From: Porphyra umbilicalis | Taxonomy: Eukaryota > Rhodophyta > Bangiophyceae > Bangiales > Bangiaceae | Reading direction: 5' to 3' | Assembly (NCBI GenBank): GCA_002049455.2 | Contig: KV918814.1 | Coordinates: 95,967-159,966, forward strand | Length of the DNA: 64,000 nucleotides | Shown: piece by piece, positions 40,629 through 64,000 of the stretch | Numbering within the stretch: position 1 is the first letter of the stretch | Layout: each line of letters starts with the position of its first letter | Translations under genes and position numbers: made by a program | The notes under the pieces: generated by a model | Databases searched by the model: none | The model's input: only the letters and a program-made list of their open reading frames with translations | What the model was told of the DNA's origin: nothing

Positions 40629-40863
40629 GTCCGATACTATTCCTCCTTTACCACGCGTCAAGCACGCTACACCCGCTACCCCGCCAACCCGCGGTTGCCG
40701 TGCTCTGGACTGTCGCTCTCGAGCTGGTCACTTCCTCCCATCTAGCAGACGTCCACTCGGCGTTTCAAGGTGCTGCACCTCTTAACCCCCTTGAGATCAT
40801 TGCACGCCCGCGCGCGCGCTGCCGGAGTTCGCGTCGTCCCTCACCGCCCCGTTCGTCTGCTGC

Positions 40864-41130
40864 ATGTCTACGATGGCCACCCTACGTGTCACCTTGTTGG
40901 TCGCTATGCTGTTGAGTGTGGCGTTCTTGGCCACCCCCCGCGAGGCCAAGGCTAGTCCCATCTCAGGACAAGCCGCCTTCTCGCAGTGCCTAAAAGTTTG
41001 GCCTCTCTGCTACTATCGCGAGCAGCGGTGCGCCGAGTGTGTTGCTAGTTGCGGCGAGGCGCACAAGAAGAGTCCAATGGAAACCTCGGCCGGCATCCGA
41101 TACGACATCTGCCGGAAAGTGCAGGCGTAG
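40864..41130 (+). CDS. Small secreted six-cysteine peptide (novel)
   Basis: An 88-residue protein from the ATG at 40864 (a second ATG is at 40873). The N-terminus is a textbook signal peptide: a short polar start, a hydrophobic core (LRVTLLVAMLLSVAFLA), then a polar stretch ending EAKAS, a likely cleavage region. The mature part of about 56 residues contains six cysteines spaced C-x6-C-x6-C-x2-C-x3-C-x19-C, suggesting three disulfides. It is rich in Lys, Arg and Glu and lacks the low complexity of neighbouring frames, which supports it as a real gene. I do not recognise the family and assign no activity; an extracellular, cell-wall or defence-related role would be speculation. It lies alone in a 0.93-kb island between two transposons (40549-41482). 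Confidence 0.6.
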   Translation: MSTMATLRVTLLVAMLLSVAFLATPREAKASPISGQAAFSQCLKVWPLCYYREQRCAECVASCGEAHKKSPMETSAGIRYDICRKVQA

Positions 41131-41482
41131 GTGTGCGCTCGTGGACGCTGGGAGCGGGGCAGGCGGGCGCTTTTGTCACCTCGGGCTCACCGCATTTGGC
41201 ACCACAAGGTGCACGCTGCTTGCATGTGGTTCGTCTTTTCTCTTCGCTTTGTGACGGTGGACACTTTCTCAAGTGGAGGGGCCCCGCCACGGGTGATAGG
41301 GGCTGCTTGCGAGCGCATGTTGTAGGGACAGCCAGTGTTGGTCTCTTTTTGTGCGCATGGCTTTCGTTCATTTCTTGCATTCTGTGCACTCTCGGTCGTG
41401 TGTCCCGTGAGGTGACAGACGCCACGGTGGAGCCACGTCCTGATGGCGGCACCACCTTGGAGAGCTGAGTGTCCGCCTGGTA
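41131..41482. other. 3' flank of the secreted peptide gene
   Basis: Probable 3' UTR and intergenic sequence up to the next element. No further gene or obvious poly(A) signal is visible. Confidence 0.35.
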
Positions 41483-41616
41483 TGGCGCGTCGCCAAAGAA
41501 TGATCGGATCTGACAAAACGCTCACAGCAAGTCACAGCAGTTCACATCAGCTCACAGCACAGAATACAAAAGTGCTGTGATCAGCCTTGCCTCGCCCTCA
41601 GCATGCAATTTTATTT

Positions 41617-42306
41617 CCCTGGCCTTTAGGACAGGGTGCTCTCAAAGTGTAGTGATGCACACATTTACTTAAATTACGGGACTTGGTCTCCGTTTCAAAG
41701 GTGGCAGTCTGCATTCGTGTCCTCAGGGATCTGAGGGCGCGTCAGTGCTGGAAGGGTCGCGATGAACCTAAAAGCGAATGGAGTTACATGGCTGAGATGA
41801 ACTGTCCTGCCACAGGGGTCACAGGGCCCGGATGGCGCCTGCCCCCCCGCCCCCCCCACCGCCCCGAGTTGCGCGCGGCGACCGCGCGCCGCGACTTCCG
41901 GGATTCGACGCGGCCGCGATGGCGCGCGGGTCATCGTGCTTTCGCGCCTGCTTCTGTTGCGGGGGCGCGTCGGCGGTTGCTGACGCCATCTAGCGGCGCG
42001 GTTAGGGGCGCCCCGTCGCGCGGCGGTCGATCCCACCCGCCCGCCCGTGCGCCTTGTCGGCCACCTCGCCCGCCGTGTGCAGGTGTGCTGCGCGGCGGAG
42101 TGACGGCCCCGCCCGTGGGCATCGCGCGACGCCGGCGGGCCGCCGCCGCTGCGGTGGCGGAGGCGGCACCCCTTTCCCCGCCCGACGCCCCCCCCACCAC
42201 GGCAACGTGGCTGTACGTGCCCACGCGCACGCTCGCGGCCATGGAGCCGGCCGGCGTGCCCAGTGTCGATGCGTCGCCGAGCGCGCCACCGCCCTGAAGG
42301 CCAGGG
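41617..42306 (+). mobile_element. 690-bp repeat, copy A (nested)
   Basis: This copy and 44609-45299 are inverted copies, 690 and 691 bp long. Both begin and end with CCCTGGCCTT or its complement, giving short imperfect terminal inverted repeats. One flank, CACGTGCGTGCAATA, is also shared by both copies, so the true boundary may lie up to 15 bp further out. The interior is GC-rich and has no recognisable gene. Probably a non-autonomous DNA element. Confidence 0.75.
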
Positions 42307-42461
42307 TATTGCACGCACGTGTGTAGCGGTTGTGGCAACCGCTGGGATGGTACTTGAAGTGCACAAGGTCGTGGAGGAGCAGGCTTACCCGGGGTTGGTA
42401 TTCGTTATACCAGGGGATTTGGAACCCCCAGCTTGGCTTGAGGTCCTGGTTGAAATGCCTG

Positions 42462-42517
42462 TGGCGAAGTGGTTTAGCGCGCGAAACTACTGTCTTGGAG
42501 GTCACAGGTTCGATTCC
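42462..42517 (+). ncRNA. tRNA-like pol III promoter (A box and B box), SINE-like or degenerate tRNA
   Basis: TGGCGAAGTGG (42462-42472) fits the A-box consensus, and GGTTCGATTCC (42507-42517) is a perfect B box, 34 bp apart as in an intron-less tRNA gene. A D-arm-like hairpin (GCG...CGC) is possible, but the acceptor arms do not pair, the T stem has only three pairs, and the anticodon stem is poor. It is therefore not called a functional tRNA. A tRNA-derived SINE or pseudo-tRNA carried by the surrounding element is more likely. Confidence 0.55.
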
Positions 42518-42893
42518 TACTCTCCGATGTTCACTTTGTCCCAATACCGCCACAACGTGACTGGAATTCAAAGCTCAGTCACAGCACGGTCACAGCATGC
42601 TGTAACTTTCTGTGGAACTTGCTCGGATCCGATCATTCTTTGGCGACGCGCCATCATGGATATCTGAGGCCCGTTCGCAGACTCCAATGTCGCTTCGCAT
42701 AACTCCGATATAACGCCCGAAACGCTGCGAAAGAAACATGCGGGCCCGGTCAGCGTTCATCTCAAACACACCATCAAAATATCAAATTATACACCGGCCG
42801 TACCTTAACGCACCGTCGACGCCCCCCTGCGGATGACGTGTAGGATTTCAAGAGAAACGGACACACATTCTATTCTAGAGATTAAACGTCAAG

Positions 42894-44455
42894 TGTCTAT
42901 TCTACCAACGACATCATATGATCCCTTTGACCTCATTTGATTCCCTTTTTCAGCAGCTGCTTGCATGTGCTTCACGTTGTCTGTGGTCACTTTTGAAGGC
43001 AGAAGTGAGCTCATCGCACTTCGTTTACCATTGGGTCAGCTCGAGGGCATCCCGCTTTGAGCAATAGTTGCCCTACCAACCTTTTTCGCGAAGCCTCGAA
43101 CCGATCCAGGTGCGCACCACAACGCAACAACAGGCTCAAGAGGGCCGCTCTCGGCCCGCTTTGAGCCTTCTTTTCACTGCGCGCGAGCGCATACGTCCCT
43201 GTAAGACCCGCGAAGGCCTTACAGTCCCCTGCACATGTCTGCATCCGCTCTCTCCACGCCTCCAGCTCTTCCCCCCCCCCGGGCCCCCTCTCTACGTGGC
43301 TTTTACGCAATCTCCCCGCCCCGTCTCTACTTCTCCACCCCTTCCACACCCTCGCCCCCCCCGTCCACGCCTCCACCTTCCTCAACACCTTGTCCTGCCC
43401 CCCTTGTCTCGCCCCCGGTACGGCCGAAGGCCTGGCGTGCAAGCCCCACGGCGATCTTCCTGCCGCTGCTGCCGCCGTCGCAGCGTCTTATTCTACCGAT
43501 CACATCATTTGATGCCATTCGCATCATATGATGCCCTTTTTGCGTCGTCGGATACGAGAAAACGGCTGCTCCGTTCTCCATTCTCACAGCATAAATGAGT
43601 TCTGCGTAGGCTTTTTACCCTTGGGGCAGAAGGATGTCGCCCAGTGTTGAATTCATCTCTCCCACACAGGTCATGTCGCAAGTAGGCAACCAACCATCCC
43701 GCCGTGTCACCCCCCCCCCCCCATGCAAAGGACAGTCTGTCCTGACGATCATTGCTACCGTTTATCGGCAGGTCCTCGTTGCCAAGTGGAGAAAAATAGG
43801 GAAAAAGAGACATCATCGGCTGAAAAGAGGAGTGAGAGAGCACAGGAAAGGTACAAAGGCGCATCTGAGGCGAGCTGAACCCGTAGGATGGCCCAAAATG
43901 GGGGGGGGGGGCGGGGAAGGGAGGGAGAGACACGAGTTGCAGTGTGGTCCGAAACGTGTTCACACTGACCGCTGCAGCAACGTCGTTTGCTTTAACTATG
44001 AGGCCCCACTCCCCGATGAGGCTGGCAGGTGCATCTGGGAGTGTGTTCCGCCGGCTACGGAGCGAAACCAACAGGCTTCGACAGTCTCCGCACGTCGAAC
44101 AGGACGACTGTACGGGGCTCCTCTGGTTGCGATTGCATCACCAAATCACCGCTTTTGGGGGTTCTGGAGGGGGAGGATGATGGGAGGGCGATGCTCGACC
44201 CCGCCAGTAGATGCCTTCGGAGTGTGCTTTGGCATTTTTTTCATACTGGGGTCATCCTCAACGAACCCTCTTTTCGTTGGGCTGAGATTGCGAAAGCCCA
44301 GCTCCATAGCGTTGATGAGAACAGCAACAGCGTGCGTTCGCAGGTGCCGCAAGGCCCGACTTCCCGCTCAGATGGCCCGCAATCGCCGATTTTGCAGGAC
44401 CTCATTTGATCCCCAGGCTGACCTCATTTGATCCCTTTTTCTGGTAGAATAGACA
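42894..44455. mobile_element. 1.56-kb non-autonomous relative of the piggyBac-type element
   Basis: The ends read TGTCTATTCTACC and its complement, sharing TGTCTATTC with the 37404-40544 element, followed by ATCATATGATCC and TCATTTGATCC subterminal motifs. Bordering tetranucleotides are CAAG (42890-42893) and CTAG (44456-44459). A second, internal copy of the left-end module at about 43484-43550 suggests a composite or nested insertion. The minus-strand frame 43011-43442 looks moderately protein-like, but no transposase motif is present. Confidence 0.7.
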
Positions 44456-44608
44456 CTAGAATCGATCGTGGGGGCCGTTTCCAACGCCGGAGGGGGGGTA
44501 GAGTTGCACGCGATTTCGATCCAAATCGCCCTCCTGACGCCACTGCGATAGGGTCACTTTCTGCGCCTTGTGCTGCTCATGTTCAATTCCAGGCACGTGC
44601 GTGCAATA

Positions 44609-45299
44609 CCCTGGCCTTCAGGGCGGTGTCGCGCTCGGCGACGCATCGACACTGGGCACGCCGGCCGGCTTCATAGCCGCGAGCGCGCACGGGGGCACGT
44701 ACAGCCATGTTGCCGTGGCGTGGGTAACGTAGGGCGGGAGAAGGGGTGCCGCCGCCGCCACCGCAGCGGCGGCGGCCCGCCGGCGTCGCGCGACGCCCAC
44801 GGGCGGGGCCGTCACTCCGCCGCGCAGCACACCTGCGCACGGCGAGCGGGGCGGCCGAGACGGCGCACAGGCGGGCCGGTGGGACCGACTGCCGCGCGAC
44901 GGGGCGCTTCTGACCGAGCCGCTAGGCGGCGTCTGGTTCTTCCGACGAGCCGCCGCGACAGATGCCGGCGCGCAGGAACGATCATCCGCGGGTCATCGCG
45001 GGCGCGGCGATCCCTGGAAGTGGCTGCGTGCGGTCGCCCCGCACAACTCGGAGCGGTGGGGGGGGGCAGGGGGGCCGGCGCCGTCCGAGCCCTATGACCC
45101 CTATGCCCGGACAGTCCTTCTCAGTTACGTAACTCCATTTGCTTTTGGCGTCACCGCCACTCTTTCAACACTGACACGCCGTCAGATCTCTAAGGACACG
45201 AAAGCAGACTGCCACATCTGAAACGGAGAGTAAGTCCCTTGATCTAAGTATGTGTGTGCATAACTACACTTTGAGAGCACCCTGTCGTAAAGGCCAGGG
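44609..45299 (-). mobile_element. 691-bp repeat, copy B (inverted relative to copy A)
   Basis: Reverse-complement counterpart of 41617-42306, with many point differences but matching ends. The two copies face each other across 2.3 kb and could pair as a very large stem. Confidence 0.75.
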
Positions 45300-46806
45300 A
45301 ATTTATCACCCGGTTTGAAGCCATTATAGACTCCTCATTGGTCGAGGGGACCTCGCATTCTCGCGATAAAAAATGACACATGCCATGTGGCGAGGCAGGG
45401 GACAGCGAACGGCGGCGCCTATACTGGGTGCCGGCTGCCGGTCTACCGCTGCCGGCATGCCCATGAGCAACCGCGCCGCTGGCGCCGCCCCGCCGGCAGC
45501 GCAGGCGGCTGTCGTGGTGGCCGCGGCTGCGCGCGCCGCGGCCGAAAGGCACGGGGACGTGCCGCCGTCGGCGGCCGTGTCGACAGCCGAGCGGGCGAAA
45601 AGCGCCTCCGCCGCCGCCACCACCGCCGCCACCGGCTGCCAAGCCACGACACGCGGGGCGGTGCCGGGGGGGGCCGCCCCGTCGGTCGCGGCGGGGGGGA
45701 GAGACGTAGCGTCGGCACCCCCCCCGCCGGCACCCGATGGCCACCGGCACAGGGCGCCGGGGCCAGTGGTGCGCGGCGCCGCGGTAGCGGAGTGGAGTGA
45801 GGCAGCCTTTGCGTGCCACGCCGTGGTACCCCCCCCCCCCACCAGCAAGGGCCGCCACGCGGTCGCCGTCGGCGGCGGCGAAGATCTCGGCGGCCGCTGC
45901 CGCTACCTCCCCAGCCACCGACCACCGAGCCGCGCGCTGCGCCGTGCCGCAGAGGGGAGATAAGCGGCAGGAAGTGACGGGGCTGGACGGCGCAGCGTTG
46001 CTAGCACCGCGCCCGCTGATGGCCCCAGCGGGTGGTAGCATGATCGTCGCCACCGTTGCGGGCGCCGCGGCGATACCCGCCTCCACCGAAGCTGGGGACC
46101 GCCACGCCGCCGGTGCCTCTGTGCTGGAGTTCGTGGGCGCTGGTGCACCAGCGGCGGCTGTTTTCGCGTCTGTAAACGGGTGAGGATAAGTCTTGTCACC
46201 GTCGGCGGCAGTGGCGGCGGCCCAGTCTACGTGGATTGCTGCACCGCCGCCGCCCCCATTGTGGTACCAAGCACGGACAGAACATGCCTGGCCCACATCT
46301 TGGGGTGGCCGCCCAGCAGGCGGAAGCCGGGCAGGGTGACCCAGGGGTGGTCGCCGCCGCTCCACGAAACCCCCGCTGAGGTGCTGTGTTCTCGAGCAGT
46401 GCTGGAGCCGGTGAGAGGGCTGCAGGAAAAGGTACGTACTCTGGCGCCTCCTACGCATCCGCTTCCACTGGTGCCGAGGTGCTGACAGCAGCGGTGGCGG
46501 CCGGACGGCGCGTTGCATCGCAGCCATCGACGTCGCGTGCAGAGGCGCATGTTCCCGCGCCGCCGTCGCCGCACCGACGTCGGCCGTAGTTGCCGGCAGG
46601 ACAATGGGCGGCTGTGATGGCAGCAGCAGCGGGCACCGCAGCCACGCCGCGGCAGCAGTTCTCACGCATTGTTCGCATATGCGGGAAAGCACTGTTGCAG
46701 GATACATAGCGGTGCCAAACAGCATGTTGGTGTGAGTTTCAGTTCTTTCTGAATGTAAAGACGTGATCACGGACGTCACTTTACCCAAAGGAAATGATGA
46801 AGTCAA
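45300..46806. other. GC-rich region between mobile elements and satellite
   Basis: A long minus-strand frame (46821-45244) runs through this GC-rich sequence, but it overlaps the end of repeat copy B and the start of the satellite and shows no domain, so no gene is claimed. The last 120 bp are less GC-rich and lead directly into the first satellite unit. Confidence 0.35.
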
Positions 46807-49800
46807 GGTACGCCCGTGCATGCGTAGTTCGCGCGTGGCGACCCGAAACGTCTGTCACCGGCCAATACGGCATGTCAGCGGATCGTCCATGGCGCATGCT
46901 GCGGGGCGGCACTTCAGCAGTCCAAAAGTCTTCGGGTGTTTTGGAAAGCAGATTGCACTGCCCAGGTGCGCCCCTGCATCCGCAGTTTGTGCGTGGCGAT
47001 CCAAAACGTCTGTCACCGCCACACACGGGCACCTATGAAAACCAGCTGTCAGGTCAGCGTCAACCGCGCATGCTGCGTAGTGGCAGATAGACACCCAGAG
47101 AGTCTTCGGGTGTCGTGGAAAGCAGATTGCTCTGCCCAGGTACGCCCGTGCATGCGTAGCTTGCGCGTGGCGACCCGAAACGTCGGTCACCGGCCAATAC
47201 GGCATGTCAGCGGATCGTCCATGGCGCATGCTGCGGGGCGGCACTTCAGCAGTCCAAAAGTCTTCGGGTGTCTTGGAAAGCAGATTGCACTGCCCAGGTG
47301 CGCCCCTGCATCCGCAGTTTGTGCGTGGCGATCCAAAACGTCTGTCACCGCCACATACGGGCACCTATGAAAACCAGCTGTCAGGTCAGCGTTAACCGCG
47401 CATGCTGCGTAGTGGCAGATAGACACCCCGAGAGTCTTCGGGTGTCGTGGAAAGCAGATTGCGCTGCCCAGGTACGCCCGTGCATGCGTAGTTTGCGCGT
47501 GGCGACCCGAAACGTCTGTCACCGGCCAATACGGCATGTCAGCGGATCGTCCATGGCGCATGCTGCGGGGCGGCACTTCAGCAGTCCAAAAGTCTTCGGG
47601 TGTTTTGGAAAGCAGATTGCACTGCCCAGGTGCGCCCCTGCATCCGCAGTTTGTGCGTGGCGATCCAAAACGTCTGTCACCGCCACATACGGGCACCTAT
47701 GAAAACCAGCTGTCAGGTCAGCGTTAACCGCGCATGCTGCGTAGTGGCAGATAGACACCCCGAGAGTCTTCGGGTGTCGTGGAAAGCAGATTGCGCTGCC
47801 CAGGTACGCCCGTGCATGCGTAGTTTGCGCGTGGCGACCCGAAACGTCTGTCACCGGCCAATACGGCATGTCAGCGGATCGTCCATGGCGCATGCTGCGG
47901 GGCGGCACTTCAGCAGTCCAAAAGTCTTCGGGTGTTTTGGAAAGCAGATTGCACTGCCCAGGTGCGCCCCTGCATCCGCAGTTTGTGCGTGGCGATCCAA
48001 AACGTCTGTCACCGCCACATACGGGCACCTATGAAAACCAGCTGTCAGGTCAGCGTTAACCGCGCATGCTGCGTAGTGGCAGATAGACACCCCGAGAGTC
48101 TTCGGGTGTCGTGGAAAGCAGATTGCGCTGCCCAGGTACGCCCGTGCATGCGTAGTTTGCGCGTGGCGACCCGAAACGTCTGTCACCGGCCAATACGGCA
48201 TGTCAGCGGATCGTCCATGGCGCATGCTGCGGGGCGGCACTTCAGCAGTCCAAAAGTCTTCGGGTGTTTTGGAAAGCAGATTGCACTGCCCAGGTGCGCC
48301 CCTGCATCCGCAGTTTGTGCGTGGCGATCCAAAACGTCTGTCACCGCCACATACGGGCACCTATGAAAACCAGCTGTCAGGTCAGCGTTAACCGCGCATG
48401 CTGCGTAGTGGCAGATAGACACCCCGAGAGTCTTCGGGTGTCGTGGAAAGCAGATTGCGCTGCCCAGGTACGCCCGTGCATGCGTCGTTTGCGCGTGGCG
48501 ACCCGAAACGTCTGTCACCGGCCAATACGGCATGTCAGCGGATCGTCCATGGCGCATGCTGCGGGGCGGCACTTCAGCAGTCCAAAAGTCTTCGGGTGTT
48601 TTGGAAAGCAGATTGCACTGCCCAGGTGCGCCCCTGCATCCGCAGTTTGTGCGTGGCGATCCAAAACGTCTGTCACCGCCACATACGGGCACCTATGAAA
48701 ACCAGCTGTCAGGTCAGCGTTAACCGCGCATGCTGCGTAGTGGCAGATAGACACCCCAAGAGTCTTCGGGTGTCGTGGAAAGCAGATTGCGCTGCCCAGG
48801 TACGCCCGTGCATGCGTAGTTTGCGCGTGGCGACCCGAAACGTCTGTCACCGGCCAATACGGCATGTCAGCGGATCGTCCATGGCGCATGCTGCGGGGCG
48901 GCACTTCAGCAGTCCAAAAGTCTTTGGGTGTTTTGGAAAGCAGATTGCACTGCCCAGGTGCGCCCCTGCATCCGCAGTTTGTGCGTGGCGATCCAAAACG
49001 TCTGTCACCGCCACATACGGGCACCTATGAAAACCAGCTGTCAGGTCAGCGTTAACCGCGCATGCTGCGTAGTGGCAGAAAGACACCCCGAGAGTCTTCG
49101 GGTGTCGTGGAAAGCAGATTGCGCTGCCCAGGTACGCCCGTGCATGCGTAGTTTGCGCGTGGCGACCCGAAACGTCTGTCACCGGCCAATACGGCATGTC
49201 AGCGGATCGTCCATGGCGCATGCTGCGGGGCGGCACTTCAGCAGTCCAAAAGTCTTCGGGTGTTTTGGAAAGCAGATTGCACTGCCCAGGTGCGCCCCTG
49301 CATCCGCACTTTGTGCGTGGCGATCCAAAACGTCTGTCACCGCCACATACGGGCACCTATGAAAACCAGCTGTCAGGTCAGCGTTAACCGCGCCTGCTGC
49401 GTAGTGGCAGATAGACACCCCGAGAGTCTTCGGGTGTCGTGGAAAGCAGATTGCGCTGCCCAGGTACGCCCGTGCATGCGTAGTCTGCGCGTGGCGACCC
49501 GAAACGTCTGTCACCGGCCAATACGGCATGTCAGCGGATCGTCCATGGCGCATGCTGCGGGGCGGCACTTCAGCAGACCAAAAGTCTTCGGGTGTTTTGG
49601 AAAGCAGATTGCACTGCCCAGGTGCGCCCCTGCATCCGCAGTTTGTGCGTGGCGATCCAAAACGTCTGTCACCGCCACATACGGGCACCTATGAAAACCA
49701 GCTGTCAGGTCAGCGTTAACCGCGCATGCTGCGTAGTGGCAGATAGACACCCCGAGAGTCTTCGGGTGTCGTGGAAAGCAGATTGCGCTGCCCAGGTACG

Positions 49801-50269
49801 CCCGTGCATGCGTAGTCTGCGCGTGGCGACCCGAAACGTCTGTCACCGGCCAATACGGCATGTCAGCGGATCGTCCATGGCGCATGCTGCGGGGCGGCAC
49901 TTCAGCAGTCCAAAAGTCTTCGGGTGTTTTGGAAAGCAGATTGCACTGCCCAGGTGCGCCCCTGCATCCGCAGTTTGTGCGTGGCCATCCAAAACGTCTG
50001 TCACCGCCACATACGGGCACCTATGAAAACCAGCTGTCAGGTCAGCGTTAACCGCGCATGCTGCGTAGTGGCAGATAGACACCCCGAGAGTCTTCGGGTG
50101 TCGTGGAAAGCAGATTGCGCTGCCCAGGTACGCCCGTGCATGCGTAGTCTGCGCGTGGCGACCCGAAACGTCTGTCACCGGCCAATACGGCATGTCAGCG
50201 GATCGTCCATGGCGCATGCTGCGGGGCGGCACTTCAGCAGTCCAAAAGTCTTTGGGTGTTTTGGAAAGC

Positions 50270-53010
50270 AGATTCCACTGCCCAGGTGCGCCCCTGCATC
50301 CGCAGTTTGTGCGTGGCGATCCAAAACGTCTGTCACCGCCACATACGGGCACCTATGAAAACCAGCTGTCAGGTCAGCGTTAACCGCGCATGCTGCGTAG
50401 TGGCAGATAGACACCCAGAGAGTCTTCGGGTGTCGTGGAAAGCAGATTGCGCTGCCCAGGTACGCCCGTGCATGCGTAGTTTGCGCGTGGCGACCCGAAA
50501 CGTCTGTCACCGGCCAATACGGCATGTCAGCGGATCGTCCATGGCGCATGCTGCGGGGCGGCACTTCAGCATTCCAAAAGTCTTCGGGTGTTTTGGAAAG
50601 CAGATTCCACTGCCCAGGTGCGCCCCTGCATCCGCAGTTTGTGCGTGGCGATCCAAAACGTCTGTCACCGCCACATACGGGCACCTACGAAAACCAGCTG
50701 TCAGGTCAGCGTTAACCGCGCATGCTGCGTAGTGGCAGATAGACACCAAGAGAGTCTTCGGGTGTCGTGGAAAGCAGATTGCGCTGCCCAGGTACGCCCG
50801 TGCATGCGTAGTCTGCGCGTGGCGACCCGAAACGTCTGTCACCGGCCAATACGGCATGTCAGCGGATCGTCCATGGCGCATGCTGCGGGGCGGCACTTCA
50901 GCAGTCCAAAAGTCTTCGGGTGTTTTGGAAAGCAGATTCCACTGCCCAGGTGCGCCCCTGCATCCGCAGTTTGTGCGTGGCCATCCAAAACGTCTGTCAC
51001 CGCCACATACGGGCACCTATGAAAACCAGCTGTCAGGTCAGCGTTAACCGCGCATGCTGCGTAGTGGCAGATAGACACCCCGAGAGTCTTCGGGTGTCGT
51101 GGAAAGCAGATTGCGCTGCCCAGGTACGCCCGTGCATGCGTAGTCTGCGCGTGGCGACCCGAAACGTCTGTCACCGGCCAATACGGCATGTCAGCGGATC
51201 GTCCATGGCGCATGCTGCGGGGCGGCACTTCAGCAGTCCAAAAGTCTTCGGGTGTTTTGGAAAGCAGATTCCACTGCCCAGGTGCGCCCCTGCATCCGCA
51301 GTTTGTGCGTGGCGATCCAAAACGTCTGTCACCGCCACATACGGGCACCTATGAAAACCAGCTGTCAGGTCAGCGTTAACCGCGCATGCTGCGTAGTGGC
51401 AGATAGACACCCCGAGAGTCTTCGGGTGTCGTGGAAAGCAGATTGCGCTGCCCAGGTACGCCCGTGCATGCGTCGTTTGCGCGTGGCGACCCGAAACGTC
51501 TGTCACCGGCCAATACGGCATGTCAGCGGATCGTCCATGGCGCATGCTGCGGGGCGGCACTTCAGCATCCAAAAGTCTTCGGGTGTTTTGGAAAGCGATT
51601 CCACTGCCCAGGTGCGCCCCTGCATCCGCAGTTTGTGCGTGGCGATCCAAAACGTCTGTCACCGCCACATACGGGCACCTATGAAAACCAGCTGTCAGGT
51701 CAGCGTTAACCGCGCATGCTGCGTAGTGGCAGATAGACACCCAGAGAGTCTTCGGGTGTCGTGGAAAGCAGATTGCGCTGCCCAGGTACGCCCGTGCATG
51801 CGTAGTTTGCGCGTGGCGACCCGAAACGTCTGTCACCGGCCAATACGGCATGTCAGCGGATCGTCCATGGCGCATGCTGCGGGGCGGCACTTCAGCATTC
51901 CAAAAGTCTTCGGGTGTTTTGGAAAGCAGATTCCACTGCCCAGGTGCGCCCCTGCATCCGCAGTTTGTGCGTGGCGATCCAAAACGTCTGTCACCGCCAC
52001 ATACGGGCACCTACGAAAACCAGCTGTCAGGTCAGCGTTAACCGCGCATGCTGCGTAGTGGCAGATAGACACCCGAGAGTCTTCGGGTGTCGTGGAAAGC
52101 AGATTGCGCTGCCCAGGTACGCCCGTGCATGCGTCGTTTGCGCGTGGCGACCCGAAACGTCTGTCACCGGCCAATACGGCATGTCAGCGGATCGTCCATG
52201 GCGCATGCTGCGGGGCGGCACTTCAGCAGTCCAAAAGTCTTGGGTGTTTTGGAAAGCAGATTCCACTGCCCAGGTGCGCCCCTGCATCCGCAGTTTGTGC
52301 GTGGCGATCCAAAACGTCTGTCACCGCCACATACGGGCACCTATGAAAACCAGCTGTCAGGTCAGCGTTAACCGCGCATGCTGCGTAGTGGCAGATAGAC
52401 ACCCCGAGAGTCTTCGGGTGTCGTGGAAAGCAGATTGCGCTGCCCAGGTACGCCCGTGCATGCGTAGTTTGCGCGTGGCGACCCGAAACGTCTGTCACCG
52501 GCCAATACGGCATGTCAGCGGATCGTCCATGGCGCATGCTGCGGGGCGGCACTTCAGCATTCCAAAAGTCTTCGGGTGTTTTGGAAAGCGATTCCACTGC
52601 CCAGGTGCGCCCCTGCATCCGCAGTTTGTGCGTGGCGATCCAAAACGTCTGTCACCGCCACATACGGGCACCTATGAAAACCAGCTGTCAGGTCAGCGTT
52701 AACCGCGCATGCTGCGTAGTGGCAGATAGACACCCCGAGAGTCTTCGGGTGTCGTGGAAAGCAGATTGCGCTGCCCAGGTACGCCCGTGCATGCGTAGTT
52801 TGCGCGTGGCGACCCGAAACGTCTGTCACCGGCCAATACGGCATGTCAGCGGATCGTCCATGGCGCATGCTGCGGGGCGGCACTTCAGCAGTCCAAAAGT
52901 CTTCGGGTGTTTTGGAAAGCAGATTCACTGCCCAGGTGCGCCCCTGCATCCGCAGTTTGTGCGTGGCGATCCAAAACGTCTGTCACCGCCACATACGGGC
53001 ACCTACGAAA
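50270..53010. repeat. Variant block inside the satellite with higher-order periodicity
   Basis: Units here share changes absent elsewhere: GATTCCACTG instead of GATTGCACTG, CATTCCAAAAG (50571, 51897 and 52559) and ACCTACGAAAAC (about 50690, 52012 and 53004). The four-unit spacing of some variants indicates that multi-unit blocks were copied together. Confidence 0.75.
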
Positions 53011-56000
53011 ACCAGCTGTCAGGTCAGCGTTAACCGCGCATGCTGCGTAGTGGCAGATAGACACCCCGAGAGTCTTCGGGTGTCGTGGAAAGCAGATTGC
53101 GCTGCCCAGGTACGCCCGTGCATGCGTAGTTTGCGCGTGGCGACCCGAAACGTCTGTCACCGGCCAATACGGCATGTCAGCGGATCGTCCATGGCGCATG
53201 CTGCGGGGCGGCACTTCAGCAGTCCAAAAGTCTTCGGGTGTTTTGGAAAGCAGATTGCACTGCCCAGGTGCGCCCCTGCATCCGCAGTTTGTGCGTGGCG
53301 ATCCAAAACGTCTGTCACCGCCACATACGGGCACCTATGAAAACCAGCTGTCAGGTCAGCGTTAACCGCGCATGCTGCGTAGTGGCAGATAGACACCCCG
53401 AGAGTCTTCGGGTGTCGTGGAAAGCAGATTGCGCTGCCCAGGTACGCCCGTGCATGCGTAGTTTGCGCGTGGCGACCCGAAACGTCTGTCACCGGCCAAT
53501 ACGGCATGTCAGCGGATCGTCCATGGCGCATGCTGCGGGGCGGCACTTCAGCAGTCCAAAAGTCTTCGGGTGTTTTGGAAAGCAGATTGCACTGCCCAGG
53601 TGCGCCCCTGCATCCGCAGTTTGTGCGTGGCGATCCAAAACGTCTGTCACCGCCACATACGGGCACCTATGAAAACCAGCTGTCAGGTCAGCGTTAACCG
53701 CGCATGCTGCGTAGTGGCAGATAGACACCCCGAGAGTCTTCGGGTGTCGTGGAAAGCAGATTGCGCTGCCCAGGTACGCCCGTGCATGCGTAGTTTGCGC
53801 GTGGCGACCCGAAACGTCTGTCACCGGCCAATACGGCATGTCAGCGGATCGTCCATGGCGCATGCTGCGGGGCGGCACTTCAGCAGTCCAAAAGTCTTCG
53901 GGTGTTTTGGAAAGCAGATTGCACTGCCCAGGTGCGCCCCTGCATCCGCAGTTTGTGCGTGGCGATCCAAAACGTCTGTCACCGCCACATACGGGCACCT
54001 ATGAAAACCAGCTGTCAGGTCAGCGTTAACCGCGCATGCTGCGTAGTGGCAGATAGACACCCCGAGAGTCTTCGGGTGTCGTGGAAAGCAGATTGCGCTG
54101 CCCAGGTACGCCCGTGCATGCGTAGTTTGCGCGTGGCGACCCGAAACGTCTGTCACCGGCCAATACGGCATGTCAGCGGATCGTCCATGGCGCATGCTGC
54201 GGGGCGGCACTTCAGCAGTCCAAAAGTCTTCGGGTGTTTTGGAAAGCAGATTGCACTGCCCAGGTGCGCCCCTGCATCCGCAGTTTGTGCGTGGCGATCC
54301 AAAACGTCTGTCACCGCCACATACGGGCACCTATGAAAACCAGCTGTCAGGTCAGCGTTAACCGCGCATGCTGCGTAGTGGCAGATAGACACCCCGAGAG
54401 TCTTCGGGTGTCGTGGAAAGCAGATTGCGCTGCCCAGGTACGCCCGTGCATGCGTAGTTTGCGCGTGGCGACCCGAAACGTCTGTCACCGGCCAATACGG
54501 CATGTCAGCGGATCGTCCATGGCGCATGCTGCGGGGCGGCACTTCAGCAGTCCAAAAGTCTTCGGGTGTTTTGGAAAGCAGATTGCACTGCCCAGGTGCG
54601 CCCCTGCATCCGCAGTTTGTGCGTGGCGATCCAAAACGTCTGTCACCGCCACATACGGGCACCTATGAAAACCAGCTGTCAGGTCAGCGTTAACCGCGCA
54701 TGCTGCGTAGTGGCAGATAGACACCCCGAGAGTCTTCGGGTGTCGTGGAAAGCAGATTGCGCTGCCCAGGTACGCCCGTGCATGCGTAGTTTGCGCGTGG
54801 CGACCCGAAACGTCTGTCACCGGCCAATACGGCATGTCAGCGGATCGTCCATGGCGCATGCTGCGGGGCGGCACTTCAGCAGTCCAAAAGTCTTCGGGTG
54901 TTTTGGAAAGCAGATTGCACTGCCCAGGTGCGCCCCTGCATCCGCAGTTTGTGCGTGGCGATCCAAAACGTCTGTCACCGCCACATACGGGCACCTATGA
55001 AAACCAGCTGTCAGGTCAGCGTTAACCGCGCATGCTGCGTAGTGGCAGATAGACACCCCGAGAGTCTTCGGGTGTCGTGGAAAGCAGATTGCGCTGCCCA
55101 GGTACGCCCGTGCATGCGTAGTTTGCGCGTGGCGACCCGAAACGTCTGTCACCGGCCAATACGGCATGTCAGCGGATCGTCCATGGCGCATGCTGCGGGG
55201 CGGCACTTCAGCAGTCCAAAAGTCTTCGGGTGTTTTGGAAAGCAGATTGCACTGCCCAGGTGCGCCCCTGCATCCGCAGTTTGTGCGTGGCGATCCAAAA
55301 CGTCTGTCACCGCCACATACGGGCACCTATGAAAACCAGCTGTCAGGTCAGCGTTAACCGCGCATGCTGCGTAGTGGCAGATAGACACCCCGAGAGTCTT
55401 CGGGTGTCGTGGAAAGCAGATTGCGCTGCCCAGGTACGCCCGTGCATGCGTAGTTTGCGCGTGGCGACCCGAAACGTCTGTCACCGGCCAATACGGCATG
55501 TCAGCGGATCGTCCATGGCGCATGCTGCGGGGCGGCACTTCAGCAGTCCAAAAGTCTTCGGGTGTTTTGGAAAGCAGATTGCACTGCCCAGGTGCGCCCC
55601 TGCATCCGCAGTTTGTGCGTGGCGATCCAAAACGTCTGTCACCGCCACATACGGGCACCTATGAAAACCAGCTGTCAGGTCAGCGTTAACCGCGCATGCT
55701 GCGTAGTGGCAGATAGACACCCCGAGAGTCTTCGGGTGTCGTGGAAAGCAGATTGCGCTGCCCAGGTACGCCCGTGCATGCGTAGTTTGCGCGTGGCGAC
55801 CCGAAACGTCTGTCACCGGCCAATACGGCATGTCAGCGGATCGTCCATGGCGCATGCTGCGGGGCGGCACTTCAGCAGTCCAAAAGTCTTCGGGTGTTTT
55901 GGAAAGCAGATTGCACTGCCCAGGTGCGCCCCTGCATCCGCAGTTTGTGCGTGGCGATCCAAAACGTCTGTCACCGCCACATACGGGCACCTATGAAAAC

Positions 56001-59000
56001 CAGCTGTCAGGTCAGCGTTAACCGCGCATGCTGCGTAGTGGCAGATAGACACCCCGAGAGTCTTCGGGTGTCGTGGAAAGCAGATTGCGCTGCCCAGGTA
56101 CGCCCGTGCATGCGTAGTTTGCGCGTGGCGACCCGAAACGTCTGTCACCGGCCAATACGGCATGTCAGCGGATCGTCCATGGCGCATGCTGCGGGGCGGC
56201 ACTTCAGCAGTCCAAAAGTCTTCGGGTGTTTTGGAAAGCAGATTGCACTGCCCAGGTGCGCCCCTGCATCCGCAGTTTGTGCGTGGCGATCCAAAACGTC
56301 TGTCACCGCCACATACGGGCACCTATGAAAACCAGCTGTCAGGTCAGCGTTAACCGCGCATGCTGCGTAGTGGCAGATAGACACCCCGAGAGTCTTCGGG
56401 TGTCGTGGAAAGCAGATTGCGCTGCCCAGGTACGCCCGTGCATGCGTAGTTTGCGCGTGGCGACCCGAAACGTCTGTCACCGGCCAATACGGCATGTCAG
56501 CGGATCGTCCATGGCGCATGCTGCGGGGCGGCACTTCAGCAGTCCAAAAGTCTTCGGGTGTTTTGGAAAGCAGATTGCACTGCCCAGGTGCGCCCCTGCA
56601 TCCGCAGTTTGTGCGTGGCGATCCAAAACGTCTGTCACCGCCACATACGGGCACCTATGAAAACCAGCTGTCAGGTCAGCGTTAACCGCGCATGCTGCGT
56701 AGTGGCAGATAGACACCCCGAGAGTCTTCGGGTGTCGTGGAAAGCAGATTGCGCTGCCCAGGTACGCCCGTGCATGCGTAGTTTGCGCGTGGCGACCCGA
56801 AACGTCTGTCACCGGCCAATACGGCATGTCAGCGGATCGTCCATGGCGCATGCTGCGGGGCGGCACTTCAGCAGTCCAAAAGTCTTCGGGTGTTTTGGAA
56901 AGCAGATTGCACTGCCCAGGTGCGCCCCTGCATCCGCAGTTTGTGCGTGGCGATCCAAAACGTCTGTCACCGCCACATACGGGCACCTATGAAAACCAGC
57001 TGTCAGGTCAGCGTTAACCGCGCATGCTGCGTAGTGGCAGATAGACACCCCGAGAGTCTTCGGGTGTCGTGGAAAGCAGATTGCGCTGCCCAGGTACGCC
57101 CGTGCATGCGTAGTTTGCGCGTGGCGACCCGAAACGTCTGTCACCGGCCAATACGGCATGTCAGCGGATCGTCCATGGCGCATGCTGCGGGGCGGCACTT
57201 CAGCAGTCCAAAAGTCTTCGGGTGTTTTGGAAAGCAGATTGCACTGCCCAGGTGCGCCCCTGCATCCGCAGTTTGTGCGTGGCGATCCAAAACGTCTGTC
57301 ACCGCCACATACGGGCACCTATGAAAACCAGCTGTCAGGTCAGCGTTAACCGCGCATGCTGCGTAGTGGCAGATAGACACCCCGAGAGTCTTCGGGTGTC
57401 GTGGAAAGCAGATTGCGCTGCCCAGGTACGCCCGTGCATGCGTAGTTTGCGCGTGGCGACCCGAAACGTCTGTCACCGGCCAATACGGCATGTCAGCGGA
57501 TCGTCCATGGCGCATGCTGCGGGGCGGCACTTCAGCAGTCCAAAAGTCTTCGGGTGTTTTGGAAAGCAGATTGCACTGCCCAGGTGCGCCCCTGCATCCG
57601 CAGTTTGTGCGTGGCGATCCAAAACGTCTGTCACCGCCACATACGGGCACCTATGAAAACCAGCTGTCAGGTCAGCGTTAACCGCGCATGCTGCGTAGTG
57701 GCAGATAGACACCCCGAGAGTCTTCGGGTGTCGTGGAAAGCAGATTGCGCTGCCCAGGTACGCCCGTGCATGCGTAGTTTGCGCGTGGCGACCCGAAACG
57801 TCTGTCACCGGCCAATACGGCATGTCAGCGGATCGTCCATGGCGCATGCTGCGGGGCGGCACTTCAGCAGTCCAAAAGTCTTCGGGTGTTTTGGAAAGCA
57901 GATTGCACTGCCCAGGTGCGCCCCTGCATCCGCAGTTTGTGCGTGGCGATCCAAAACGTCTGTCACCGCCACATACGGGCACCTATGAAAACCAGCTGTC
58001 AGGTCAGCGTTAACCGCGCATGCTGCGTAGTGGCAGATAGACACCCCGAGAGTCTTCGGGTGTCGTGGAAAGCAGATTGCGCTGCCCAGGTACGCCCGTG
58101 CATGCGTAGTTTGCGCGTGGCGACCCGAAACGTCTGTCACCGGCCAATACGGCATGTCAGCGGATCGTCCATGGCGCATGCTGCGGGGCGGCACTTCAGC
58201 AGTCCAAAAGTCTTCGGGTGTTTTGGAAAGCAGATTGCACTGCCCAGGTGCGCCCCTGCATCCGCAGTTTGTGCGTGGCGATCCAAAACGTCTGTCACCG
58301 CCACATACGGGCACCTATGAAAACCAGCTGTCAGGTCAGCGTTAACCGCGCATGCTGCGTAGTGGCAGATAGACACCCCGAGAGTCTTCGGGTGTCGTGG
58401 AAAGCAGATTGCGCTGCCCAGGTACGCCCGTGCATGCGTAGTTTGCGCGTGGCGACCCGAAACGTCTGTCACCGGCCAATACGGCATGTCAGCGGATCGT
58501 CCATGGCGCATGCTGCGGGGCGGCACTTCAGCAGTCCAAAAGTCTTCGGGTGTTTTGGAAAGCAGATTGCACTGCCCAGGTGCGCCCCTGCATCCGCAGT
58601 TTGTGCGTGGCGATCCAAAACGTCTGTCACCGCCACATACGGGCACCTATGAAAACCAGCTGTCAGGTCAGCGTTAACCGCGCATGCTGCGTAGTGGCAG
58701 ATAGACACCCCGAGAGTCTTCGGGTGTCGTGGAAAGCAGATTGCGCTGCCCAGGTACGCCCGTGCATGCGTAGTTTGCGCGTGGCGACCCGAAACGTCTG
58801 TCACCGGCCAATACGGCATGTCAGCGGATCGTCCATGGCGCATGCTGCGGGGCGGCACTTCAGCAGTCCAAAGTCTTCGGGTGTTTTGGAAAGCAGATTG
58901 CACTGCCCAGGTGCGCCCCTGCATCCGCAGTTTGTGCGTGGCGATCCAAAACGTCTGTCACCGCCACATACGGGCACCTATGAAAACCAGCTGTCAGGTC

Positions 59001-62000
59001 AGCGTTAACCGCGCATGCTGCGTAGTGGCAGATAGACACCCCGAGAGTCTTCGGGTGTCGTGGAAAGCAGATTGCGCTGCCCAGGTACGCCCGTGCATGC
59101 GTAGTTTGCGCGTGGCGACCCGAAACGTCTGTCACCGGCCAATACGGCATGTCAGCGGATCGTCCATGGCGCATGCTGCGGGGCGGCACTTCAGCAGTCC
59201 AAAAGTCTTCGGGTGTTTTGGAAAGCAGATTGCACTGCCCAGGTGCGCCCCTGCATCCGCAGTTTGTGCGTGGCGATCCAAAACGTCTGTCACCGCCACA
59301 TACGGGCACCTATGAAAACCAGCTGTCAGGTCAGCGTTAACCGCGCATGCTGCGTAGTGGCAGATAGACACCCCGAGAGTCTTCGGGTGTCGTGGAAAGC
59401 AGATTGCGCTGCCCAGGTACGCCCGTGCATGCGTAGTTTGCGCGTGGCGACCCGAAACGTCTGTCACCGGCCAATACGGCATGTCAGCGGATCGTCCATG
59501 GCGCATGCTGCGGGGCGGCACTTCAGCAGTCCAAAAGTCTTCGGGTGTTTTGGAAAGCAGATTGCACTGCCCAGGTGCGCCCCTGCATCCGCAGTTTGTG
59601 CGTGGCGATCCAAAACGTCTGTCACCGCCACATACGGGCACCTATGAAAACCAGCTGTCAGGTCAGCGTTAACCGCGCATGCTGCGTAGTGGCAGATAGA
59701 CACCCCGAGAGTCTTCGGGTGTCGTGGAAAGCAGATTGCGCTGCCCAGGTACGCCCGTGCATGCGTAGTTTGCGCGTGGCGACCCGAAACGTCTGTCACC
59801 GGCCAATACGGCATGTCAGCGGATCGTCCATGGCGCATGCTGCGGGGCGGCACTTCAGCAGTCCAAAAGTCTTCGGGTGTTTTGGAAAGCAGATTGCACT
59901 GCCCAGGTGCGCCCCTGCATCCGCAGTTTGTGCGTGGCGATCCAAAACGTCTGTCACCGCCACATACGGGCACCTATGAAAACCAGCTGTCAGGTCAGCG
60001 TTAACCGCGCATGCTGCGTGTGGCAGATAGACACCCCGAGAGTCTTCGGGTGTCGTGGAAAGCAGATTGCGCTGCCCAGGTACGCCCGTGCATGCGTAGT
60101 TTGCGCGTGGCGACCCGAAACGTCTGTCACCGGCCAATACGGCATGTCAGCGGATCGTCCATGGCGCATGCTGCGGGGCGGCACTTCAGCAGTCCAAAGT
60201 CTTCGGGTGTTTTGGAAAGCAGATTGCACTGCCCAGGTGCGCCCCTGCATCCGCAGTTTGTGCGTGGCGATCCAAAACGTCTGTCACCGCCACATACGGG
60301 CACCTATGAAAACCAGCTGTCAGGTCAGCGTTAACCGCGCATGCTGCGTAGTGGCAGATAGACACCCCGAGAGTCTTCGGGTGTCGTGGAAAGCAGATTG
60401 CGCTGCCCAGGTACGCCCGTGCATGCGTAGTTTGCGCGTGGCGACCCGAAACGTCTGTCACCGGCCAATACGGCATGTCAGCGGATCGTCCATGGCGCAT
60501 GCTGCGGGGCGGCACTTCAGCAGTCCAAAGTCTTCGGGTGTTTTGGAAAGCAGATTGCACTGCCCAGGTGCGCCCCTGCATCCGCAGTTTGTGCGTGGCG
60601 ATCCAAAACGTCTGTCACCGCCACATACGGCACCTATGAAAACCAGCTGTCAGGTCAGCGTTAACCGCGCATGCTGAGTGGTGGCAGATAGACACCCCGA
60701 GAGTCTTCGGGTGTCGTGGAAAGCAGATTGCGCTGCCCAGGTACGCCCGTGCATGCGTAGTTTGCGCGTGGCGACCCGAAACGTCTGTCACCGGCCAATA
60801 CGGCATGTCAGCGGATCGTCCATGGCGCATGCTGCGGGGCGGCACTTCAGCAGTCCAAAAGTCTTCGGGTGTTTTGGAAAGCAGATTGCACTGCCCAGGT
60901 GCGCCCCTGCATCCGCAGTTTGTGCGTGGCGATCCAAAACGTCTGTCACCGCCACATACGGCACCTATGAAAACCAGCTGTCAGGTCAGCGTTAACCGCG
61001 CATGCTGCGTGGTGGCAGATAGACACCCCGAGAGTCTTCGGGTGTCGTGGAAAGCAGATTGCGCTGCCCAGGTACGCCCGTGCATGCGTAGTTTGCGCGT
61101 GGCGACCCGAAACGTCTGTCACCGGCCAATACGGCATGTCAGCGGATCGTCCATGGCGCATGCTGCGGGGCGGCACTTCAGCAGTCCAAAGTCTTCGGGT
61201 GTTTGGAAAGCAGATTGCACTGCCCAGGTGCGCCCCTGCATCCGCAGTTTGTGCGTGGCGATCCAAAACGTCTGTCACCGCCACATACGGGCACCTATGA
61301 AAACCAGCTGTCAGGTCAGCGTTAACCGCGCATGCTGCGTGGTGGCAGATAGACACCCCGAGAGTCTTCGGGTGTCGTGGAAAGCAGATTGCGCTGCCCA
61401 GGTACGCCCGTGCATGCGTAGTTTGCGCGTGGCGACCCGAAACGTCTGTCACCGGCCAATACGGCATGTCAGCGGATCGTCCATGGCGCATGCTGCGGGG
61501 CGGCACTTCAGCAGTCCAAAAGTCTTCGGGTGTTTGGAAAGCAGATTGCACTGCCCAGGTGCGCCCCTGCATCCGCAGTTTGTGCGTGGCGATCCAAAAC
61601 GTCTGTCACCGCCACATACGGGCACCTATGAAAACCAGCTGTCAGGTCAGCGTTAACCGCGCATGCTGAGTGGTGGCAGATAGACACCCCGAGAGTCTTC
61701 GGGTGTCGTGGAAAGCAGATTGCGCTGCCCAGGTACGCCCGTGCATGCGTAGTTTGCGCGTGGCGACCCGAAACGTCTGTCACCGGCCAATACGGCATGT
61801 CAGCGGATCGTCCACGGCGCATGCTGCGGGGCGGCACTTGAGCAGTCCAAACGTCTTCGGGTGTTTGGAAAGCAGATTGCACTGCCCAGGTGCGCCCCTG
61901 CATCCGCAGTTTGTGCGTGGCGATCCAAAACGTCTGTCACCGCCACATACGGCACCTATGAAAACCAGCTGTCAGGTCAGCGTTAACCGCGCATGCTGAG

Positions 62001-62708
62001 TGGTGGCAGATAGACACCCCGAGAGTCTTCGGGTGTCGTGGAAAGCAGATTGCGCTGCCCAGGTACGCCCGTGCATGCGTAGTTTGCGCGTGGCGACCCG
62101 AAACGTCTGTCACCGGCCAATACGGCATGTCAGCGGATCGTCCAGGCGCATGCTGCGGGGCGGCACTTCAGCAGTCCAAAGTCTTCGGGTGTTTTGGAAA
62201 GCAGATTGCACTGCCCAGGTGCGCCCCTGCATCCGCAGTTTGTGCGTGGCGATCCAAAACGTCTGTCACCGCCACATACGGGCACCTATGAAAACCAGCT
62301 GTCAGGTCAGCGTTAACCCGCATGCTGATGGTGGCAGATAGACACCCGAGAGTCTTCGGGTGTCGTGGAAAGCAGATTGCGCTGCCCAGGTACGCCCGTG
62401 CATGCGTAGTTTGCGCGTGGCGACCCGAAACGTCTGTCACCGGCCAATACGGCATGTCAGCGGATCGTCCACGGCGCATGCTGCGGGGCGGCACTTGAGC
62501 AGTCCAAACGTCTTCGGGTGTTTGGAAAGCAGATTGCACTGCCCAGGTGCGCCCCTGCATCCGCAGTTTGTGCGTGGCGATCCAAAACGTCTGTCACCGC
62601 CACATACGGCACCTATGAACCAGCTGTCAGGTCAGCGTAACCGCATGCTGGTGTGGCGATAGACACCGAGAGTCTTCGGGTGTCGTGGAAAGCAGATTGC
62701 GCTGCCCA

Positions 62709-62902
62709 GGTACGCCGTGCATGCGTAGTTGCGCGTGGCGACCCGAAACGTCTGTCACCGGCCAATACGGCATGTCAGCGATCGTCCAGTGGCACCTATG
62801 AAAACCAGCTGTCAGGTCAGCGTTAACCGCGCATGCTGCAGTGGTGGCAGATAGACACCCCGAGAGTCTTCGGGTGTCGTGGAAAGCAGATTGCGCTGCC
62901 CA
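62709..62902. repeat. Internally deleted satellite unit
   Basis: This unit is 194 bp instead of 332. GATCGTCCA is joined directly to TGGCACCTATG, removing the end of half A and the start of half B, and several single bases are also missing. Confidence 0.75.
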
Positions 62903-64000
62903 GGTACGCCCGTGCATGCGTAGTTTGCGCGTGGCGACCCGAAACGTCTGTCACCGGCCAATACGGCATGTCAGCGGATCGTCCATGGCGCATGCTGCGG
63001 GGCGGCACTTCAGCAGTCCAAAAGTCTTCGGGTGTTTTGGAAAGCAGATTGCACTGCCCAGGTGCGCCCCTGCATCCGCAGTTTGTGCGTGGCGATCCAA
63101 AACGTCTGTCACCGCCACATACGGGCACCTATGAAAACCAGCTGTCAGGTCAGCGTTAACCGCGCATGCTGCGTGGTGGCAGATAGACACCCCGAGAGTC
63201 TTCGGGTGTCGTGGAAAGCAGATTGCGCTGCCCAGGTACGCCCGTGCATGCGTAGTTTGCGCGTGGCGACCCGAAACGTCTGTCACCGGCCAATACGGCA
63301 TGTCAGCGGATCGTCCATGGCGCATGCTGCGGGGCGGCACTTCAGCAGTCCAAAGTCTTCGGGTGTTTTGGAAAGCAGATTGCACTGCCCAGGTGCGCCC
63401 CTGCATCCGCAGTTTGTGCGTGGCGATCCAAAACGTCTGTCACCGCCACATACGGGCACCTATGAAAACCAGCTGTCAGGTCAGCGTTAACCGCGCATGC
63501 TGCGTAGTGGCAGATAGACACCCCGAGAGTCTTCGGGTGTCGTGGAAAGCAGATTGCGCTGCCCAGGTACGCCCGTGCATGCGTAGTTTGCGCGTGGCGA
63601 CCCGAAACGTCTGTCACCGGCCAATACGGCATGTCAGCGGATCGTCCATGGCGCATGCTGCGGGGCGGCACTTCAGCAGTCCAAAAGTCTTCGGGTGTTT
63701 TGGAAAGCAGATTGCACTGCCCAGGTGCGCCCCTGCATCCGCAGTTTGTGCGTGGCGATCCAAAACGTCTGTCACCGCCACATACGGGCACCTATGAAAA
63801 CCAGCTGTCAGGTCAGCGTTAACCGCGCATGCTGTAGTGGCAGATAGACACCCCGAGAGTCTTCGGGTGTCGTGGAAAGCAGATTGCGCTGCCCAGGTAC
63901 GCCGTGCATGCGTAGTTTGCGCGTGGCGACCCGAAACGTCTGTCACCGGCCAATACGGCATGTCAGCGGATCGTCCATGGCGGCTGCGGGGATAGCAGAT

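What the first reader, a model, noticed from the sequence alone, without database searches (positions are those of the whole stretch)
46807..64000. Dimeric 332-bp satellite with near-nucleosomal half-units
The unit consists of two diverged halves of 158 and 174 bp, amplified together about 52 times with at least 17 kb uninterrupted. Mean half-unit length (166 bp) is close to nucleosomal DNA, as in many centromeric satellites. If this is a red alga, satellites of this kind are poorly described there. The centromere idea is inference.
Basis: partly seen in the sequence, partly recalled or inferred. Interest (0 to 1): 0.8.

Follow-up and report, generated by a model that had tools for sequence, protein, structure and literature searches.

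The report
Red-algal dimeric satellite, possible centromere
A red alga carries a 332-base DNA unit repeated head to tail in long blocks at just three places in its assembled genome, which makes it a good but unproven candidate for the DNA that its chromosomes are pulled apart by.

Summary
Window 46806-64000 is a head-to-tail array of a 332-bp unit made of two related half-units (A 158 bp, B 174 bp; 123 of 158 aligned bases identical), about 52 copies. The window stops at an assembly gap and the array goes on. The genome is a red alga: a contig with phycobilisome genes is present. A conserved 25-mer, scanned over the whole assembly with 0 or up to 3 mismatches, occurs 776 and 869 times, and every occurrence lies on three scaffolds: C54 (65 kb), C67 (72 kb) and C150 (11 kb of satellite split by insertions). 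A and B alternate in 865 of 870 adjacent pairs. Consensuses of the main blocks of different loci differ by 3-8%. That is the anatomy of a centromere-type satellite, but centromere identity is not shown: no CenH3 mapping was possible, the chromosome number is unknown, CENP-C was not found, and there is no CENP-B box or 10-bp rotational signal. C54 also contains an unresolved orientation switch. A weak CenH3 candidate gene (C17:290760-291182) would make the test direct. New member of a known kind.

The parts
46806..64000 (+). satellite array, about 52 copies of a 332-bp AB dimer; continues beyond the window to C54:208124
   Evidence: TRF; unit BLAST over C54
47447..47604 (+). example of half-unit A (158 bp)
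   Evidence: sequence, half-unit segmentation
47605..47778 (+). example of half-unit B (174 bp; carries 16 bp with no counterpart in A)
   Evidence: sequence, A/B alignment
62522..62878 (+). irregular half-units (163 + 194 bp), the one spot in the window where A/B alternation is broken
   Evidence: TRF splits the array nearby
46746..46805 (.). left junction: non-satellite sequence meets the array abruptly, inside a half-unit A
   Evidence: border sequences
28001..46805 (.). flank of lower G+C (54-67% per 2 kb against 67-83% further left) holding a piggyBac-type transposase and repeats
   Evidence: composition, PF13843 at 37719-39383, self-comparison of flanks

Best explanation
This is a genuine noncoding satellite DNA that amplified as an AB dimer and is kept uniform within blocks by unequal exchange or gene conversion. 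It forms one major locus on each of three scaffolds of a Bangiales-like red alga, most likely as centromeric (or immediately pericentromeric) DNA. Proposed working: nucleosomes, including those with a centromeric H3, sit about one per half-unit, and the tandem array gives a stable seat for the kinetochore. Shown here: the dimer, its alternation, confinement to three loci, subfamilies that mostly track locus or block, decay at some edges, and later insertion of mobile elements. Inferred: the mechanism of homogenisation, centromere function, nucleosome phasing, one array per chromosome.
For: Whole-assembly counts of the conserved 25-mer equal the counts inside the three loci, exactly (141+635 = 141+227+32+376) and with up to 3 mismatches (147+722 = 147+231+67+424). 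A second 25-mer: 231 = 202+29. All three loci are interior, at least 48 kb from either scaffold end (contig lengths; positions). A/B alternate in 865 of 870 pairs. Consensus identity is 100% between C54A and C54C and 92-97% between the main blocks of different loci; copies are 97-100% like their own block consensus. Two edges are clearly more diverged: C67 left edge 4-5 substitutions per half-unit against 0.2-1 in parts of the core, and C150 right edge up to 13. The period is not a multiple of 3, and the longest closed ORF listed in the window's array is 283 aa. No Rfam family at gathering score and no tRNA in the window. Reverse-transcriptase and integrase domains start 2.4 kb from the C150 array, and that array is split by a TIR element.
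Against: No CenH3 occupancy data. Chromosome number of this genome unknown; related species have 3 (P. yezoensis) or 5 (N. haitanensis) chromosomes (PMC7423979, PMC8752119 passages), so three loci fit only some cases. The C150 locus holds only 11.3 kb of satellite. C67 is a mosaic that includes a C150-like block, so subfamilies are not strictly locus-specific. Edge decay is not general: C54 edges are only slightly diverged and the C150 left edge not at all. CENP-C_C (PF11699) not found. CENP-B box no better than in shuffles; WW 10-bp periodicity lower than in most shuffles (453 of 500 reach it); dyads not in excess (2 against a shuffle mean of 1.2). G+C-rich, gene-like sequence begins about 2 kb right of the C54 array.
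Confidence: 0.58

Rival explanations
1. A non-centromeric heterochromatic satellite (knob-like or interstitial block): a selfish tandem repeat that spread to three places and is kept uniform by recombination, with no kinetochore role.
For: Three loci only, one small; G+C-rich gene-like sequence close by; no CENP-C hit; no CENP-B box or rotational signal.
Against: Confinement to one locus on each of three scaffolds, with largely locus-typed subfamilies, is more usual for centromeric than for dispersed satellites (general knowledge).
Confidence: 0.27
2. Subtelomeric satellite near chromosome ends.
For: Tandem arrays with sharp edges also occur there; no telomere scan was run.
Against: All three loci are interior, at least 48 kb from both scaffold ends, with non-satellite sequence on both sides.
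Confidence: 0.05
3. Much of the apparent structure (array length, the orientation switch on C54, the perfectly identical block C54B, the C67 mosaic) is assembly artefact on top of a real but differently sized or ordered satellite.
For: N gaps of 1,500 (C54) and 541 (C67) lie inside arrays and coincide with subfamily changes. C54B is 46 half-units without a single difference. Half-units 1-4 bp short cluster near the C54 gap and in parts of C54C and C67. The units at the orientation junction are truncated.
Against: C54A and C54C have different flanks apart from dispersed repeats, and variants found at the outer edge of C54A (C54:144-149 kb) are absent from C54C, so C54C is not a fold-back copy of C54A. 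Clean 332-bp periodicity over long stretches at all three loci.
Confidence: 0.3
4. Tandem noncoding-RNA gene cluster (5S, snRNA or spliced-leader type).
For: Repeat of gene-cluster size, homogenised.
Against: No Rfam match at gathering thresholds, no tRNA in the window.
Confidence: 0.03

Closest known systems
Primate alpha satellite, AB dimeric form (macaque dimers; human suprachromosomal families 1 and 2)
   Same: Two diverged about 170-bp halves amplified together; near-identical multimers; older, more divergent copies at edges (PMC8997354 passages; the 171-bp length is from PMC4053949 passages).
   Different: No sequence relation claimed or tested; no CENP-B box; assembled arrays of tens of kb, not Mb; alga, not animal; CenH3 not mapped.
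Dimeric higher-order centromere repeats of plants and animals (Sorghum AB dimer; 343-bp New World monkey repeat with weakly related halves)
   Same: AB dimer in which the halves are diagnostically different (PMC4053949 passages).
   Different: Here the halves also differ in length (158/174) and function is untested.
Cyanidioschyzon merolae (red alga) centromeres
   Same: Red algal.
   Different: Described as short low-GC regions (PMC11005252 passage), not satellite arrays; this dimer is 60% G+C and tandemly repeated.
TE-rich green-algal centromeres (Chlorella)
   Same: Algal.
   Different: Described as TE-rich, without tandemly repeated satellite (PMC11005252 passages).

Membership tests
Satellite DNA | long head-to-tail tandem array of a noncoding unit | tested here: met
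Satellite DNA | concerted evolution (copies more alike within a block than between) | tested here: met
Dimeric higher-order repeat | diverged halves alternate and are copied together | tested here: met
   865 of 870 adjacent pairs alternate; halves 123/158 identical
Centromeric satellite | bound by CenH3/kinetochore | not testable with these tools
   no ChIP data; only an unproven CenH3 candidate gene was found
Centromeric satellite | one major locus on every chromosome, little elsewhere | tested here: inconclusive
   three loci in the assembly, no other match with up to 3 mismatches in the 25-mer; chromosomes not resolved
Centromeric satellite | unit near nucleosome length (common, not required) | tested here: met
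   158/174 bp, dimer 332
CENP-B-box satellite | NTTCGNNNNANNCGGGN (recalled motif) | tested here: not met
   best match 2 mismatches of 9; of 200 shuffles 124 also had 2, 24 had 1 and 52 had 3
Subtelomeric satellite | adjacent to a telomere or scaffold end | tested here: not met
   loci at least 48 kb from scaffold ends; telomere repeats themselves not scanned

The most novel reading that the evidence does not exclude
A mesophilic red alga has satellite-based regional centromeres built of an alpha-satellite-like AB dimer, arisen independently of animals and plants, with largely different homogenised subfamilies per chromosome, and at least one chromosome (C54) carrying two blocks in opposite orientation, unlike the short non-satellite centromeres of Cyanidioschyzon.
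Probability: 0.45. Interest if true: 0.72.

Novelty: new member of a known kind. Interest (0 to 1): 0.5.

Why it matters
The one red-algal centromere description met in the passages read is the short low-GC type of Cyanidioschyzon (PMC11005252). None of the papers listed was seen to describe a satellite centromere in a red alga (titles and abstract starts; passages of six papers). If these arrays are centromeres, satellite centromeres with dimeric units arose in a further major lineage, and a genome with three compact, partly assembled loci (11-72 kb) is an easy place to study them. A candidate CenH3 gene, though weak, gives a direct test.

Tried and rejected
Conserved dyad at half-unit boundaries: two perfect 7-bp-arm dyads exist (shuffle mean 1.2 with arms of 6 or more). 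The A>B one has a paired A/T to C/G difference between C54A/C54C and C67A/C150, but C54B, most C67B2 and the edge copies carry mismatched versions. Not taken as evidence of selection.

A conserved first 86 bp of each half-unit: A against B is more alike there (76/88 against 47/70, p 0.006), and B varies less there between subfamilies (5/86 against 16/88, p 0.018), but A does not (11/86 against 12/72, p 0.51). Mixed, only suggestive.

Rotational nucleosome signal (WW, about 10 bp): not found. Shuffles in that call kept base composition only, not dinucleotides.

Fold-back assembly as the cause of the C54 orientation switch: C54A edge variants are absent from C54C and the flanks differ apart from dispersed repeats, so a simple fold-back is disfavoured; a false join is not excluded.

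Further loci: DNA searches with three units or pieces and the 3-mismatch scan gave no other scaffold, but those DNA searches scored only 4 of 13, 5 of 13 and 4 of 57 candidates, so copies more diverged than 3 mismatches in the 25-mer may be missed. Exact scan of viral contigs: 0.

Species: not named by any tool. High G+C is described as a Bangiales trait (PMC7423979 passage). A resemblance to Porphyra umbilicalis in size is from recall; its genome paper is not held.

Full report
WHAT WAS CHECKED. The window is scaffold C54:95967-159966 of an unnamed 83.8-Mb, 665-contig assembly. TRF finds a 332-bp period from 46806 to 62793 (48.3 copies, 99% matches) and 3.6 more copies to 63982. The unit is A (158 bp) + B (174 bp). 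A and B share 123 of 158 aligned bases, and B has an extra 16 bp. G+C of the dimer is 60%, and CpG observed/expected is 1.02.

ORGANISM. Contig C665 (185 kb) carries 10 of 11 phycobilisome-family matches. ORFs there include chains that look like phycoerythrin alpha and beta (beta named by eye). The alpha chain was searched against the PDB: its best matches are R- and B-phycoerythrins and a record titled fluorescent protein (314-330 bits for the nine best), while records named cyanobacterial or C-phycoerythrin reach only 236-238 bits. It is a red alga. High G+C (this window 54-83% per 2 kb) is described as a Bangiales feature (64-68%, against 37-57% in other red algae; PMC7423979 passage). The species is not identified.

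EXTENT. The array is cut at the window's end only by an N gap (C54:159967-161466). It runs + from C54:142772 to 169365, then - from 169360 to 208124. Other copies: C67:150769-223161 (-, with a 541-N gap at 195479-196019) and C150:94581-98725, 122493-128955 and 129693-130392 (all -). Satellite bases assembled: about 63.8 kb + 71.9 kb + 11.3 kb, or 147 kb, about 0.18% of the assembly (from the intervals).

NO DISPERSED COPIES SEEN. The 25-mer GGAAAGCAGATTGCNCTGCCCAGGT occurs 141 + 635 times in the whole assembly with no mismatch, and the three loci hold 141 + 227 + 32 + 376. With up to 3 mismatches the assembly has 147 + 722 and the loci 147 + 231 + 67 + 424. A second 25-mer gives 231 in the assembly = 202 on C67 + 29 on C150. 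Within that sensitivity the satellite exists at three loci and nowhere else. More diverged relatives are not excluded, because the similarity searches scored only part of their candidates. One 50-bp piece lies 1.4 kb outside the C150 array.

EVOLUTION OF THE ARRAYS. I cut the arrays into 878 half-units. Of 870 adjacent pairs, 865 alternate A/B; the five exceptions lie at two irregular spots. Consensus sequences of C54A and C54C are identical in both halves. Between the main blocks of different loci they are 92-97% identical, and copies are 97-100% like their own consensus (the tiny C150C remnant, three half-units, is 89-93% like the others). C67 is a mosaic: one subfamily left of the gap, a C150-like one at 196-207.5 kb, then a third from about 209 kb, which speaks against strict chromosome specificity or for a scaffold join. 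Divergence rises clearly at the C67 left edge and the C150 right edge, mildly at the C67 right edge, slightly at the C54 edges and not at the C150 left edge. Older copies at edges are described for primate arrays (PMC8997354 passages). The C54 block 161467-169365 has 46 half-units without a difference, and short half-units cluster near the C54 gap and in stretches of C54C and C67; array lengths are therefore provisional.

SURROUNDINGS. The left flank in the window (28-46.8 kb) has lower G+C than the sequence further left and a piggyBac-type transposase (PF13843, E 4e-38, 37719-39383). The right flank of C150 has reverse-transcriptase and integrase domains at 132841-133287 and 133995-134366, 2.4-4 kb from the array. 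The C150 array was invaded by a 23.8-kb element (98726-122492) with terminal inverted repeats and a 2-bp duplication, in phase with the unit (borders read by eye). Its first 1.5 kb is 94% identical to C12:451855-453355, and parts of its first 150 bp match 34 further places. A 0.74-kb hAT-like insert (ends CAGGGGCTT...AAGCCCCTG, 8-bp duplication, read by eye; superfamily recalled) lies at C150:128956-129695. By contrast, G+C of 71-77% (gene-like) starts about 2 kb right of the C54 array. Each locus lies at least 48 kb from its scaffold ends.

WORKING. Most likely a centromeric satellite; confidence 0.58. Steps shown: tandem dimer, confinement, concerted evolution, edge decay at some edges, insertion history. 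Steps inferred: CenH3 seat, nucleosome phasing, one per chromosome. For the kinetochore side, 75 H3-like matches were listed and eight were read: one canonical and six divergent ones and the one in the C150 element. One, at C17:290760-291182, has a divergent tail and a one-residue insertion in loop 1 relative to canonical H3 at C17:222722, a usual CenH3 hallmark (recalled). Its core is 73% identical to the next best match in the genome, a canonical-type H3. The best 60 of 172 PDB matches shown are titled H3, with none titled CENP-A. It is a weak candidate only, and 67 H3-like matches were not read. CENP-C_C was not found, which is itself weak because introns and divergence can hide it.

AGAINST. 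Simple sequence tests of centromere traits were negative or mixed: no CENP-B box beyond chance, no WW 10-bp periodicity, no excess of dyads, conserved stretch only in part. The number of chromosomes is not known; related species have 3 or 5. The word centromere has 0 occurrences in the main text of either of those two genome papers.

NOVELTY. Satellite DNA with AB dimers is a well-known kind. What is new is the lineage. Ten library searches, seen as listings with abstract starts, and passages of PMC4053949, PMC5989262, PMC7423979, PMC8752119, PMC8997354 and PMC11005252 showed no satellite centromere described in a red alga. The P. umbilicalis genome paper is not held, and most subscription papers are missing from the library, so this is not proof of absence from print.

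Noticed in passing
C150:98726-122492 (L017-L019); related ends at C12:451855 and parts of the end at 34 other places: A 23.8-kb element with inverted terminal repeats (CGTCGGCGGTYCTGCC) sits inside the satellite and carries an H3-like histone ORF with a long, altered N-tail (open frame C150:104735-105472). C12 has a 97%-identical H3 core 12.5 kb from a related end. 4 of 36 element ends have an H3-like match within 30 kb inward against about 1 expected. Possible histone-carrying mobile element.
   Followed up: partly
whole assembly, 75 matches on 62 contigs: Large set of H3-like matches (some partial or with stops), all but two of them 43-77% identical to the query core; only four look close to canonical by score and one of these was read. 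Unexplained.
   Followed up: partly
C17:290760-291182 (L036): CenH3 candidate, the only one of eight H3-like genes read with a loop-1 insertion; divergent tail, but its best PDB matches are H3, none titled CENP-A among the 60 shown.
   Followed up: partly
C54:169360: Array orientation switches here; junction units are truncated. Real inversion or false join not resolved.
   Followed up: partly
window 16402-16994 and 35882-36472: Two copies of a palindromic 590-bp element (each 89-90% identical to its own reverse complement), likely foldback/MITE-type.
   Followed up: no
C150:93105-93288; window 9854-9992: A palindrome of about 136 bp (92% identical to its own reverse complement) next to a 50-bp stray piece of the satellite; a related palindrome (about 76%) occurs in the window.
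   Followed up: no
window 10267-12669(-), 19389-20708(-), 21833-23044(+): ORFs with Pfam matches for a diflavin reductase (three domains), a nucleosome assembly protein (NAP) and an AAA_2 ATPase (HslU-like by eye), each in a single open frame.
   Followed up: no
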